DNA from: a virus
Direction: 5' to 3' (one strand)
Length of the DNA: 21,282 nucleotides
IMG/VR virus record: IMGVR_UViG_3300047552_000997
Location: 1-21,282 of that record
A model generated the notes under the pieces. That model did no database searches. It saw nothing but the letters and a program-made list of their open reading frames with translations, and was not told the origin of the DNA. Made by a program: the position numbers and the translations under genes. Shown here piece by piece: positions 4,992-14,463 of the stretch (the stretch's first letter is position 1; each line of letters begins with the position of its first letter).

Positions 4992-5516
4992 CTAATGGAC
5001 CAATGCCGCGTGAGCAGTATCAAGGGCTTTTGATGCAATCGCGATTGACGCTAACCGATCGCGGTCCTGATGCGAACCTGCTATGCGTTCCAGATCATCC
5101 AACCCTCTGCGCGCCGATTGAATTTTGCTGTTGAAGATTTCGAGCGCAGACAACCATTCGTCGGGCCTGGACATCGCGACGGATACGCTCTGATACCCGC
5201 GTACATGAGACCCGTCGTCTCTGGTTTGTTGGATTGAAACGAATACAGGCACAGTTGATCCGTCGTCCTTTTTTTCAATAACCGCACGGATCAACTGGCG
5301 CGCCTGCCATTCGCGGTATCGTGCCGCCGCAACCGAGTTGCGCCATTCAAAAGCACCGTGCAACGGGCTTGATTTCGATTCTGCCGCCGCAACAACAGCG
5401 GCCGGAGTCAGCAGGCCATCGGATGCAAGAATCGATTCCAGTTCATCCAGTGCCGCCGCAGGATCGACGCCTTTCGTTTGCGCGAAAGATGCGTCCTTCC
5501 AAACAATTTTTCCCAT
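4992..5516 (-). CDS. Hypothetical phage protein, 174 aa
   Basis: The protein begins MGKIVWKDASFAQTKGVDPAAALDELESI. The central LHGAFEWRNSVAAARYREWQARQLIRAVI pattern is seen in a group of small phage proteins of unknown function. A beta-rich middle (VPVFVSIQQTRDDGSHVRGYQSV) is followed by a helical C-terminus with a likely coiled coil (ALEIFNSKIQSARRGLDDLERI). It follows pentamer array A in the direction of transcription. A GATTTACGGGT element sits just before its ATG and may supply the ribosome-binding site. Confidence 0.75.
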   Translation of the reverse strand: MGKIVWKDASFAQTKGVDPAAALDELESILASDGLLTPAAVVAAAESKSSPLHGAFEWRNSVAAARYREWQARQLIRAVIEKKDDGSTVPVFVSIQQTRDDGSHVRGYQSVSVAMSRPDEWLSALEIFNSKIQSARRGLDDLERIAGSHQDRDRLASIAIASKALDTAHAALVH

Positions 5517-5561
5517 AAATCACCCGTAAATCTGATGCCGTCCGTGGCCGTGAAGTCCAAT

Positions 5562-5715
5562 GCCTGCCATGATTTGCCCTGCCTGGCCTGGCCAAGCCGT
5601 GCCCCGCCACGCCTGCCCTGAGTTGCCTGGCCTCGTCGCGCCACACCCAGACACGCCTTGCCTGCCGTGATTTGCCGGGCCGTGCCTCGCCACGCCGCGC
5701 CGGGCCTTGCCTGCC
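5562..5715. repeat. Pentanucleotide array A, (GGCNN)n on the transcribed minus strand
   Basis: On the plus strand the unit is NNGCC at strict 5-bp pitch: eight units at 5574-5613 and eight at 5672-5711, with a few 4-bp slips between. Every third to tenth unit is replaced by a punctuation motif TGCC-N-TGA-K-TTGCC (5564, 5614, 5663), spaced 50 and 49 bp. The array starts 4 bp after the stop of the 5720-6325 gene and ends before the 4992-5516 gene. Because GGCNN contains no stop in most phases it stays open in all minus-strand frames, giving false ORFs rich in Gly, Ala, Arg and Gln. Confidence 0.85.
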
Positions 5716-5719
5716 TCGA

Positions 5720-6325
5720 TTACGCCGTACGCTTCACCCGGAAGCGTCCGAATTCGCCGCCTTTTTCCGGCCTCCATTCGCCAATCCCGACACCGAATCC
5801 AGCTCGGTCAATCAAGTTGCAGATATCAGAGAGTTGCAACAGTTCTGCATCGAACTCGATTTCGATATCGACCTCCCACGAATCAAACTGCGGGCGGTAT
5901 CTCAGGTCCGTGCTTCCCATTCCGACCCTGACATAATCCTCGCGGATCGACGGGTTATCGCATCGCATCGGGATAACGCCGGACGGATCAGAAGACGGAA
6001 TGAATAGTGCCTTTCTGACAAGGGTTTTTTCGATTCCCAAGTCCTTGTGAGCAGCGCCGATGATTGCCGACTTGATAGCCAACAGCGGGACGCCATGATT
6101 GCCATCTGGTGTCAGATACGCGGCCGCTTCGGCTTCCGCTTGTGGATCTCGGATCTCGCGCGTTTTCGTCTTGCGCCCTGCGTGCTTTTCCCGCATCTCG
6201 CGCTTTGCCTTCTCGCTCCACTGATGCTGAATCAGCGGAGAGATTCCCTGAATCGTGATCATAGTTCGCGCGATATTCATCGGTTTCAACGCGACGACGC
6301 TTTCTGTTGCTTTTGCCATTGTCAT
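5720..6325 (-). CDS. Conserved-looking phage protein of unknown function between the pentamer arrays
   Basis: The 201-aa protein begins MTMAKATESVVALKPMNIARTMITIQGISPLIQHQWSEK in short blocks. It continues with a Lys/Arg-rich segment (KAKREMREKHAGRKTKTREI), then GVPLLAIKSAIIGAA and a C-terminal block AGFGVGIGEWRPEKGGEFGRF. The last block resembles the glycine-rich ends of RAMP/Cas7-like folds, but this is only a resemblance. Start at 6325: GGAG lies 6 bp upstream. It is the only gene boxed by the two arrays and sits in the operon just after the ERF/YqaJ pair, so a role in recombination or nucleic-acid handling is reasonable but unproven. Confidence 0.75.
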   Translation of the reverse strand: MTMAKATESVVALKPMNIARTMITIQGISPLIQHQWSEKAKREMREKHAGRKTKTREIRDPQAEAEAAAYLTPDGNHGVPLLAIKSAIIGAAHKDLGIEKTLVRKALFIPSSDPSGVIPMRCDNPSIREDYVRVGMGSTDLRYRPQFDSWEVDIEIEFDAELLQLSDICNLIDRAGFGVGIGEWRPEKGGEFGRFRVKRTA

Positions 6326-6380
6326 TTACTCCACCGATCTCGGCCCGGTGTCTGCCGTTTCCGCGAATTTGCGGATAACC

Positions 6381-6675
6381 TGCCTGCCCTGAGTTGCCAT
6401 GCCTAGCCCGGCCGTTGCCACGCCAAGACCAGCCTGCCATGCCTCACCGTGAACCGCCCAGCCTTGGCCCGCCCTGCCTGCCGCGAGTTTCCGCGCCCTG
6501 CCAAGCCACGCCACGCCGAGCCCTGCCTGCCCAGCCACAACTTGACTTGCCATGCCGAGACTCGCCATTCCACGCCTGCCGTGCGGTGCCGTGCGGTGCC
6601 GTGACTTACCCCGACTGCCATGAGTTGCCACGCCTAGCCTTGCCCGGACTCGCCTTGCCGAGCCTCGCCTGCCAA
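6381..6675. repeat. Pentanucleotide array B, (GGCNN)n on the transcribed minus strand
   Basis: About 295 bp of degenerate 5-bp repeat of the same consensus as array A. The punctuation motif recurs at 6385-6398 and 6616-6629, with a weaker copy at 6479-6492. A 10-bp unit GTGCGGTGCC is duplicated exactly at 6581-6600. The array begins right after the stop of the exported-protein gene (6679) and ends about 55 bp before the start of the 5720-6325 gene. It is more degenerate than array A. Confidence 0.8.
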
Positions 6676-6678
6676 CCG

Positions 6679-7134
6679 CTACTCAACAGCCTGAAACAAC
6701 CCGCCACGCGCACCCCTGGCAGCAGGCCCTCCACAGTCCACGCGCTCCCATGCTGGCGCGCTCCAAGATCTGAAATAGATCACGTTGTCTGTCGCATTCG
6801 GCGGTATCCTCATGCTGACATTCAGCCTGATGTCAGGCTCTCCGCTTGTGGTGTGCAGATACATGCTCGCGACACCATAAAGCGGGTACGTGCTTTGTGG
6901 TTCATAGGTCGGCTGCATGTCGCCCTCAATACGACGCCGATACCCTAGAGGCGTTTTGTACGGCCGCGCGTATCGCACCGAGATCACTTGCTTAGTTTCG
7001 CCGAGCGAATCTCGCTGCACATAGCACGCATCAATGGCTCCGTTCGTCTCGAATTCTTCCGGCGTGATCGCGTGGGCTGGGACGACTGTTGCCAGGAGCA
7101 GCAGCAGAAAAAGAAGGATTGCGATGGTTTTCAT
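6679..7134 (-). CDS. Exported protein of unknown function
   Basis: The 151-aa protein has a clear Sec signal peptide (MKTIAILLFLLLLLATVVPA, cleavage after AHA near residue 22). The mature domain has a likely disulphide pair (Cys near 37 and Cys near 134) and beta-prone sequence (QVISVRYARPY, DIRLNVSMRIPP, VIYFRSWSAPAWERVDC). The last 15 residues (GGPAARGARGGLF) look like repeat array B running into the gene, so the C-terminus may have been extended by the array. Its ATG overlaps the exonuclease stop. An early exported phage protein could act in superinfection exclusion or envelope modification; that is speculation. Confidence 0.75.
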   Translation of the reverse strand: MKTIAILLFLLLLLATVVPAHAITPEEFETNGAIDACYVQRDSLGETKQVISVRYARPYKTPLGYRRRIEGDMQPTYEPQSTYPLYGVASMYLHTTSGEPDIRLNVSMRIPPNATDNVIYFRSWSAPAWERVDCGGPAARGARGGLFQAVE

Positions 7135-13593: not shown

Positions 13594-14463
13594 ATGGCCA
13601 GGATACGAACGATCAAGCCGGAATTTTTCCGGCATGAAGAACTGCAAGACATCGAGATCGCGAATCCAGGCAAGTACGTGATGCTCGTGTTCGCTGGACT
13701 TTGGGGCCACTGCGACAGCAAGGGGCGATTCGAGTACCGGCCCCGACAACTCAAGCTCGACATCCTGCCGTTTCTGTCCTTCGACATGAGCGAGACGTTG
13801 CAAATCCTCTGCAATGCTCGACTCGTTGAACGCTACGAAGTCGAAGGTAAAGCGTACGGATTCATTCCATCATTCGAAAAGCATCAACGACTTAGCGGGA
13901 AGGAATCAAGCGAAGGAGAGAAATACCCAAGCATCGAAAAAGCAGACAAAGAAGCAACGTGGAAGCAACGGGGAAGCAACGGGGAAGCAGTAGAGAAATT
14001 CCAGAACTTCACAAATGTCCAGGAAAGGGAAAGGGAAAGGGAAGGGAATAGGAACATGGAAATGGAAGGGGGATGCAAGGGGGAAACCATGTCGGACCCC
14101 GAACCAGAACCGCATGCCGAACCGCCAACCAAGCAGAAAGCCGCTCGCAGTCGCTCGCTTGACTGTGACAACGATCAGGACTTCTCGGAATTCTGGCAGC
14201 AATACCCCAAGCGCCACGGGACCGACAGCAAAGCTGCGGCTTACCGCTGTTGGGCCGCTCGCATTCGAGACGGTTGTGGACCAGGGACGATGATCCTCGG
14301 CGCCCAGCGATACGCCGCGCATTGCGATGCGAAAGGGATCACCGGGACCGAGTACGTCATGCAGGCCGCGCGATTCATCGGCCGCGATAGGCACTTCGAA
14401 AACGACTGGAGGAAACCCAATGCACCCCGTTCCGTCTACGACGTCAACGACCGCCCTTTCTGA
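13594..14463 (+). CDS. O-like phage replication protein
   Basis: The 289-aa protein starts MARIRTIKPEFFRHEELQDI, followed by a winged-helix-like domain (GLWGHCDSKGRFEYRPRQLKLDILPF ... YGFIPSFEKHQ). This is the N-terminus of many phage replication initiators. Residues 100-190 form a low-complexity linker that houses the candidate origin. The C-terminal domain shows FSEFWQQYPKRHGTDSKAAAYRCW, a helicase-loader-binding style. It begins directly after the methyltransferase stop (TAA-ATG) and overlaps the next gene by 44 bp. Lambda O has the same layout with an internal origin. Confidence 0.85.
   Translation: MARIRTIKPEFFRHEELQDIEIANPGKYVMLVFAGLWGHCDSKGRFEYRPRQLKLDILPFLSFDMSETLQILCNARLVERYEVEGKAYGFIPSFEKHQRLSGKESSEGEKYPSIEKADKEATWKQRGSNGEAVEKFQNFTNVQEREREREGNRNMEMEGGCKGETMSDPEPEPHAEPPTKQKAARSRSLDCDNDQDFSEFWQQYPKRHGTDSKAAAYRCWAARIRDGCGPGTMILGAQRYAAHCDAKGITGTEYVMQAARFIGRDRHFENDWRKPNAPRSVYDVNDRPF
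13951..13994 (+). repeat. 11-bp iteron array, candidate replication origin
   Basis: GAAGCAACG begins at 13951, 13962 and 13973 and a fourth, partial copy (GAAGCA) at 13984: exact 11-bp pitch. Eleven is not a multiple of three, so the copies are read in three different frames and encode ATWKQRGSNGEAVEK with no repeat at protein level. The repeat is therefore kept at DNA level, as origin iterons would be. Confidence 0.7.
14021..14076 (+). repeat. Strand-asymmetric purine tract beside the iterons
   Basis: From 14021 a hexamer repeat (AGGGAA/GGGAAA, about four copies) extends into further purine-rich sequence to about 14076, almost free of pyrimidines. It encodes the ERERERE stretch of the replication protein (residues 143-151). 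Together with the iterons 30 bp upstream it recalls the iteron-plus-asymmetric-tract design of the lambda origin. Confidence 0.6.

What the first reader, a model, noticed from the sequence alone, without database searches (positions are those of the whole stretch)
5562..6675. Two (GGCNN)n pentanucleotide arrays box a single unknown gene
Arrays A (5562-5715) and B (6381-6675) share the same strict 5-bp consensus, and both lie as intercistronic spacers in one leftward transcript. Array A starts within 5 bp of the stop of the 5720-6325 gene, and array B starts directly after the stop of the exported-protein gene. Elsewhere in this operon genes overlap by 4 bp, so about 450 bp of repeat spacer is a strong exception. 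The NN positions vary freely while GGC is kept, which points to selection on GGC phasing (two units per helical turn) or on the RNA. Possible roles: boundary sequences for cassette exchange by the neighbouring ERF/YqaJ system, a protein-binding array, or a structured mRNA spacer. Exchange between A and B would excise or swap the gene.
Basis: partly seen in the sequence, partly recalled or inferred. Interest (0 to 1): 0.85.

Follow-up and report, generated by a model that had tools for sequence, protein, structure and literature searches.

The report
Phage VIPR guide-RNA locus (CRISPR-like)
The two five-base repeat arrays are stretches of guide RNA belonging to a recently described phage weapon called VIPR, in which a small CRISPR-related protein (the 'boxed' gene) uses the variable letters of each repeat to find and silence genes of competing viruses.

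Summary
In detail: two strand-specific GGCNN arrays lie before and after one gene in a leftward phage operon, far above chance. The interpretation (cassette-exchange boundaries, protein-binding array or mRNA spacer) is not the best one. The boxed gene (5720-6325) is a RAMP/Cas7-like protein: its profile matches PDB 36pp 'SUSP1 Vipr protein' at E 3e-32, and its model matches Csm3/Cas7-type subunits. The locus is therefore a VIPR system (PMC13142463, preprint 2026): vipr, an accessory gene (4992-5516) and vrRNA guide arrays whose NN dinucleotides pair with DNA, skipping one base. About 120 relatives carry the same gene pair, with arrays on the gene sense strand (55,574 nt against 69 nt antisense). 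In this clade a 4-nt step (GGCA|GGC) separates head-to-tail guides. Two guides decoded by the published rule hit sensible targets: the vipr gene of rival phages (own copy mismatched) and a prophage exonuclease, 23 of 24 bases. The window's own guides found no convincing target. New member of a known kind; guide boundaries, whole-guide turnover and these targets are not in the text I could read.

The parts
5720..6325 (-). vipr gene: RAMP/Cas7-like guide-RNA-binding protein, 201 aa (phrog_4652)
   Evidence: profile A3 vs PDB 36pp 'SUSP1 Vipr protein' E 3.3e-32; AlphaFold2 pLDDT 93.2; Foldseek to Csm subunits E 2.3e-6; VIA-align Z 11.2 over 151 residues; phrog_4652
4992..5516 (-). accessory gene (vap-like), 174 aa (phrog_15946); function unknown, predicted N-terminal helices, beta hairpin, C-terminal helical hairpin
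   Evidence: phrog_15946; 78 of 80 loci found through this protein also carry vipr; model pLDDT 94.6 with no clear PDB match
5560..5715 (-). vrRNA array A, three head-to-tail guides in the vipr-accessory spacer
   Evidence: segmentation; periodicity statistics
5667..5711 (-). guide A1, NN code AA CC GC GT GA AC CC AA AC
5618..5662 (-). guide A2, NN code AA GT TG GT GC GA CA AA AG
5569..5613 (-). guide A3, NN code GT GG AC TT CA CA AG AA AT
6380..6673 (-). vrRNA array B, six guides upstream of vipr
   Evidence: segmentation; periodicity statistics
6620..6669 (-). guide B1, NN code GA TC AA GA CG AA TA GT AA AT
6581..6615 (-). guide B2, only 7 units, low complexity (GG AA AC AC AC AC AC); overlaps a perfect 10-bp tandem repeat
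6532..6576 (-). guide B3, NN code GT AT GA TC AT AA AA GT TG
6483..6527 (-). guide B4, NN code AG TC GT GT TT AG GC AA GC
6439..6478 (-). guide B5, NN code AG GG AA TG GG AC GA AT
6389..6434 (-). guide B6, contains one 6-nt unit (possibly damaged), NN code TG TT GT AA(c) CG TA AT AA AG

Best explanation
This is a VIPR (Viral Interference Programmable Repeat) locus of a temperate phage. The leftward operon yields mRNA for vipr and its accessory protein, plus vrRNAs from arrays A and B. Vipr subunits (a minimal RAMP, related to Cas7/Csm3) line up on the RNA, one per GGYNN unit, gripping GGY and exposing NN. The NN dinucleotides pair with double-stranded DNA while one target base per unit is skipped, usually a codon wobble base; binding blocks transcription of a competitor's gene. 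In this clade guides are packed head to tail and a 4-nt step GGCA|GGC marks where one ends and the next begins; the window carries about nine guides. Shown here: Vipr homology and RAMP fold, array code, strand rule, linkage, guide boundaries in two decoded cases, two plausible targets in relatives. Taken from the preprint: RNA expression, Vipr-vrRNA complex, 1-nt skip, silencing. Inferred: that the window's locus is active and silences rival phages, and that each subunit takes one unit.
For: Vipr homology: A3 profile vs 36pp E 3e-32; the SUSP1-type phage protein L012, nearly identical to 36pp, belongs to the same family phrog_4652. RAMP fold. Array code: GGC conserved, NN free, over 9,821 five-nt units. 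Sense strand only: 141 array regions sense, 1 antisense; 124 of 131 loci have an array, including phages with 41-43% G+C. Linkage vipr-accessory 35/40 and 78/80. Target 1: the L113 guide GA GA AT GT CG GT GG AT matches vipr codons for EDMVRVGM exactly in 9 other loci, in frame with wobble skipped; no exact hit under skip 0, 2, 3 or 4; its own vipr has 3 mismatches. Target 2: guide V2 of a Varibaculum prophage (L133) matches 23 of 24 bases in a phage-type DUF2800 exonuclease gene beside phage DNA polymerase and ssDNA-binding genes; about 7e-4 such hits expected by chance; reversed-pattern control 0 of 396 genomes; two of the other three hits (3 mismatches) are homologous genes. In both cases pairing fills the run between two 4-nt steps and stops there.
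Against: No target found for the window's guides: full-length A1, A2 and A3 gave no exact hit in IMG/VR; 8-unit B1 and A1 gave 6 and 15 hits, which look like chance. Over all 570 guides, exact targets in about 4.4 million local positions were not significantly more than for shuffled guides (4 guides vs mean 1.9), so skip-rule support in this clade rests on two guides; a second L133 guide (V1) found nothing. No conserved structured 3' tail like that of SUSP1 vrRNAs was seen, and Rfam has no match. In the window the last two units of most guides are nearly constant (AA, then A plus any base) and may be a handle rather than guide. No expression data. The supporting paper is a preprint.
Confidence: 0.95

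Rival explanations
1. The arrays are boundary sequences for recombination (cassette exchange) by the neighbouring ERF/YqaJ system, so that A-B exchange excises or swaps the gene.
For: ERF and YqaJ genes lie next to it; low-complexity G+C-rich repeats recombine easily; arrays of related phages differ by whole blocks.
Against: Array position varies (one side, either side, or downstream of the second gene) while the gene pair stays; Cheoctovirus loci have only one array and no ERF/YqaJ among the annotated neighbours; strict strand bias and free NN positions are not expected of recombination substrates; the gene is a Vipr homologue.
Confidence: 0.02
2. The arrays are a protein-binding RNA or DNA element without guide function: Vipr (or the accessory protein) coats GGCNN RNA to control its own mRNA, as TRAP does with triplets spaced by 2 nt.
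For: Arrays sit in the operon's own mRNA on the sense strand; a 5-nt unit with 8-11 units resembles a ring or filament site; the window's guides show no target.
Against: NN diversity (0.02-0.23 bits) and whole-guide turnover are unnecessary for a binding site; two decoded targets; experiments with SUSP1 VIPR (PMC13142463).
Confidence: 0.04
3. Simple repeat expansion (slippage) of a G+C-rich pentamer with no function.
For: Local perfect 10-bp repeats inside B (6577-6603).
Against: Same code in about 120 loci over diverse phages and hosts, including genomes of 41-43% G+C; GGC kept while NN is random; one strand only; tied to one gene pair.
Confidence: 0.01

Closest known systems
VIPR system of Escherichia phage SUSP1 (PMC13142463; PDB 36pp)
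   Same: Homologous Vipr protein (E 3e-32, same phrog_4652), small two-gene phage locus, arrays of GGY/NN units before and after the genes.
   Different: Accessory protein unrelated by profile to the gene next to vipr in the SUSP1-type phage L012 (phrog_15946 vs phrog_5926; hhalign probability 0.2%); guides packed head to tail with a 4-nt step instead of about 100-nt units with an invariant structured tail; GGC dominates here, GGT is common in L012.
VIPR types with 'staggered arrays with overlapping vrRNAs' (PMC13142463, main text; their fig. S18 not readable here)
   Same: Possibly the same architecture: guides follow each other without separate tails.
CRISPR class 1 backbone subunits Csm3/Cas7
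   Same: Same fold (Foldseek E 2.3e-6; VIA-align Z 11.2); RNA-lined oligomer and periodic interruption of pairing are established for Csm3/Cas7 and reported for Vipr.
   Different: No CRISPR repeat-spacer array or other cas gene seen at the locus; 5-nt unit with 3 conserved letters instead of contiguous spacers; phage-encoded; no spacer-acquisition genes seen.

Membership tests
VIPR system | Vipr protein, a minimal RAMP | tested here: met
   profile vs 36pp E 3.3e-32; single-sequence phmmer E 1.1e-6; RAMP fold
VIPR system | vrRNA of alternating conserved GGY and hypervariable NN, 9-16 repeats | tested here: met
   GGCNN units, NN 0.23/0.02 bits; nine guides of 7-10 units in the window, at or slightly below the lower end of the range in the paper
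VIPR system | accessory vap gene beside vipr | tested here: inconclusive
   A tightly linked gene is there, but whether it is one of vap1-6 could not be read; not homologous by profile to the gene next to vipr in SUSP1-type phage L012
VIPR system | invariant 3' tail on vrRNA | tested here: inconclusive
   No dedicated tail seen at array ends; no Rfam match; a near-constant GGCAAMTCAN motif ends most window guides
VIPR system | target recognition by NN with 1-nt skip | tested here: inconclusive
   Two decoded guides in relatives; none for the window's own guides; no overall excess
VIPR system | encoded by phages or proviruses | tested here: met
   Window is a virus record with integrase, repressor, endolysin and replication genes
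VIPR system | vrRNA expressed and bound by Vipr | not testable with these tools
   needs RNA sequencing and pull-down
CRISPR-Cas | direct repeats with unique contiguous spacers and cas genes | tested here: not met
   TRF and array segmentation show only 5-nt units and their 49-nt blocks; the two locus proteins match no PADLOC or NCBIfam CRISPR model

The most novel reading that the evidence does not exclude
This clade of VIPR has its own guide grammar: several head-to-tail guides delimited only by a 4-nt register slip (GGCA|GGC), read from a shared transcript without individual tails, and arrays that gain and lose whole guides between near-identical phages. That would imply a guide acquisition or exchange process analogous to spacer turnover in CRISPR, with rivals' vipr genes among the targets.
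Probability: 0.35. Interest if true: 0.8.

Novelty: new member of a known kind. Interest (0 to 1): 0.6.

Why it matters
VIPR is a newly reported way of reading DNA with RNA, proposed to predate CRISPR. This window adds a member in a clade found in mycobacteriophages, Gordonia phages, a cyanophage, a Varibaculum prophage and many uncultured phages. The arrays of closely related Cheoctovirus phages differ by whole guides, so how a phage obtains new guides, the open question between VIPR and adaptive immunity, could be studied in Mycobacterium smegmatis, an easy laboratory host.

Tried and rejected
Helical-turn spacing, recombination boundaries and slippage were rejected after the comparative survey. 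A TRAP-like ring was considered before the structure search and is kept only as a minor rival. Targets for window guides: full-length A1, A2, A3 none; 8-unit A1 and B1 chance-like. The conserved Cheoctovirus guide core gave 2 hits, about the chance expectation. The systematic guide-target scan of local phage DNA gave no overall excess. A genome scan with close relatives of vipr found none, so the window's host stays unknown. The accessory protein's model has no convincing PDB match. The preprint's supplement could not be consulted, so its type assignment (I-VII) is open.

Full report
OBSERVATION. Arrays A (5560-5715) and B (6380-6673) exist as described. Lag-5 identity is 0.59 and 0.51, against shuffle means of 0.32 and 0.30 (0 of 2000 shuffles as high), and no other part of the window exceeds 0.36. 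On the coding strand the unit is GGCNN; the three fixed positions carry 1.1-1.5 bits, the NN positions 0.23 and 0.02 bits. The period is interrupted every 7-10 units by a 4-nt step, GGCA|GGC, so that most blocks are 49 nt.

RELATIVES. A blastn search of the region against phages found the same kind of array in Cheoctovirus mycobacteriophages and in cyanophage Cy-LDV1. In each case it sits beside the same two genes: X (window 5720-6325, phrog_4652) and Y (window 4992-5516, phrog_15946). Searching IMG/VR with X and with Y gave 120 loci. Loci found through Y carry X in 78 of 80 cases, and loci found through X carry Y in 35 of 40; the two Y loci without X have Y at the very start of the contig. 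An array scan found 141 array regions (55,574 nt) on the sense strand and one (69 nt) on the other; 124 of 131 loci have one.

IDENTITY OF GENE X. Its sequence looked like a RAMP protein (Gly-rich C-terminal loop). The profile of 64 relatives matches PDB 36pp, 'SUSP1 Vipr protein', at E 3.3e-32. The AlphaFold2 model (pLDDT 93.2) matches Csm-type CRISPR subunits (Foldseek E 2.3e-6; VIA-align Z 11.2, rmsd 3.8 over 151 residues). Literature: PMC13142463 (bioRxiv, April/June 2026) describes VIPR systems: vipr, an accessory vap gene and vrRNAs of GGY/NN repeats whose NN dinucleotides pair with double-stranded DNA with one skipped base per unit; they repress competing phages. The window fits this description. 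The text I could read does not mention this locus or the phrog_15946 accessory; the supplement could not be read.

GUIDE BOUNDARIES. In the relatives there are 1,318 four-nt steps, about half exactly GGCAGGC. The number of units between steps is bimodal: a main peak at 7-11 and a smaller one at 1-4 whose meaning is unexplained. In the two guides with a decoded target, pairing covers exactly the run between two steps (8 of 8 units in L113; 12 units, 23 of 24 bases, in L133) and is absent beyond. I infer that the step separates guides.

TARGETS. Guides were decoded as xNN. Guide GA GA AT GT CG GT GG AT of L113 matches the vipr gene of nine other VIPR phages exactly and of five more with one mismatch, in frame, with the wobble base skipped (peptide EDMVRVGM); L113's own vipr has three mismatches. 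These are homologous sites, so they count as one event, and chance for one such event in that scan was not negligible (about 0.1 by my estimate). The stronger case is guide V2 of a Varibaculum cambriense prophage (L133): one genome of the same order has a 23/24 match, with 0.0007 expected, in a DUF2800 exonuclease gene next to a phage DNA polymerase and ssDNA-binding gene; two further hits with three mismatches are homologous genes, and the reversed pattern gives none. A second L133 guide found nothing. A systematic scan of all guides over about 4.4 million local positions showed no significant excess. The window's own guides gave no convincing target.

TURNOVER. Cheoctovirus phages with nearly identical Vipr differ by whole guides: L026 equals L027 plus two guides (apart from one NN change), L030 equals L029 plus one, while outer guides are shared.

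ACCESSORY PROTEIN. Y is predicted with high confidence (pLDDT 94.6) but has no clear structural relative and is not related by profile to the gene next to vipr in the SUSP1-type phage L012. Its role is open; by analogy with vap1 in the preprint it may help binding or repression.

VERDICT. Real, and a member of a very recently described kind. The new material is the clade's guide punctuation, strict strand rule, whole-guide turnover, and two decoded targets including a rival's vipr gene.

Noticed in passing
window 6577-6603: Perfect 10-bp tandem repeat (TGCCGTGCGG x2.7) inside array B makes guide B2 low-complexity and short; probably a decayed or slipped guide.
   Followed up: partly
L018 4810-7550: A whole array block is duplicated (the same series of guides occurs twice) together with a second copy of the accessory gene Y.
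   Followed up: no
related arrays in general (for example L026-L030): Besides guides of 7-12 units there is a second class of 1-4 units between 4-nt steps (for example AC-AT in Cheoctovirus); its meaning is unknown.
   Followed up: no
L012 3147-3419 and 4742-4848: The Felix O1-like Shigella phage vB_SflM_004 carries a VIPR locus with GGT-rich arrays on both sides of vipr; its Vipr is nearly identical to the SUSP1 protein in PDB 36pp.
   Followed up: partly
L133 10000-11231: Varibaculum cambriense prophage has vipr, the same accessory gene and an array with two long guides, one matching a prophage exonuclease gene of a related genome.
   Followed up: yes
window 13951-13989: Tandem repeat of an 11-mer (GAAGCAACGGG x3.5) inside the replication-initiation gene 13594-14463.
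   Followed up: no
window 6679-7134: Small predicted exported protein (151 aa, N-terminal signal-like segment) directly upstream of array B; no Pfam or PHROG match.
   Followed up: partly
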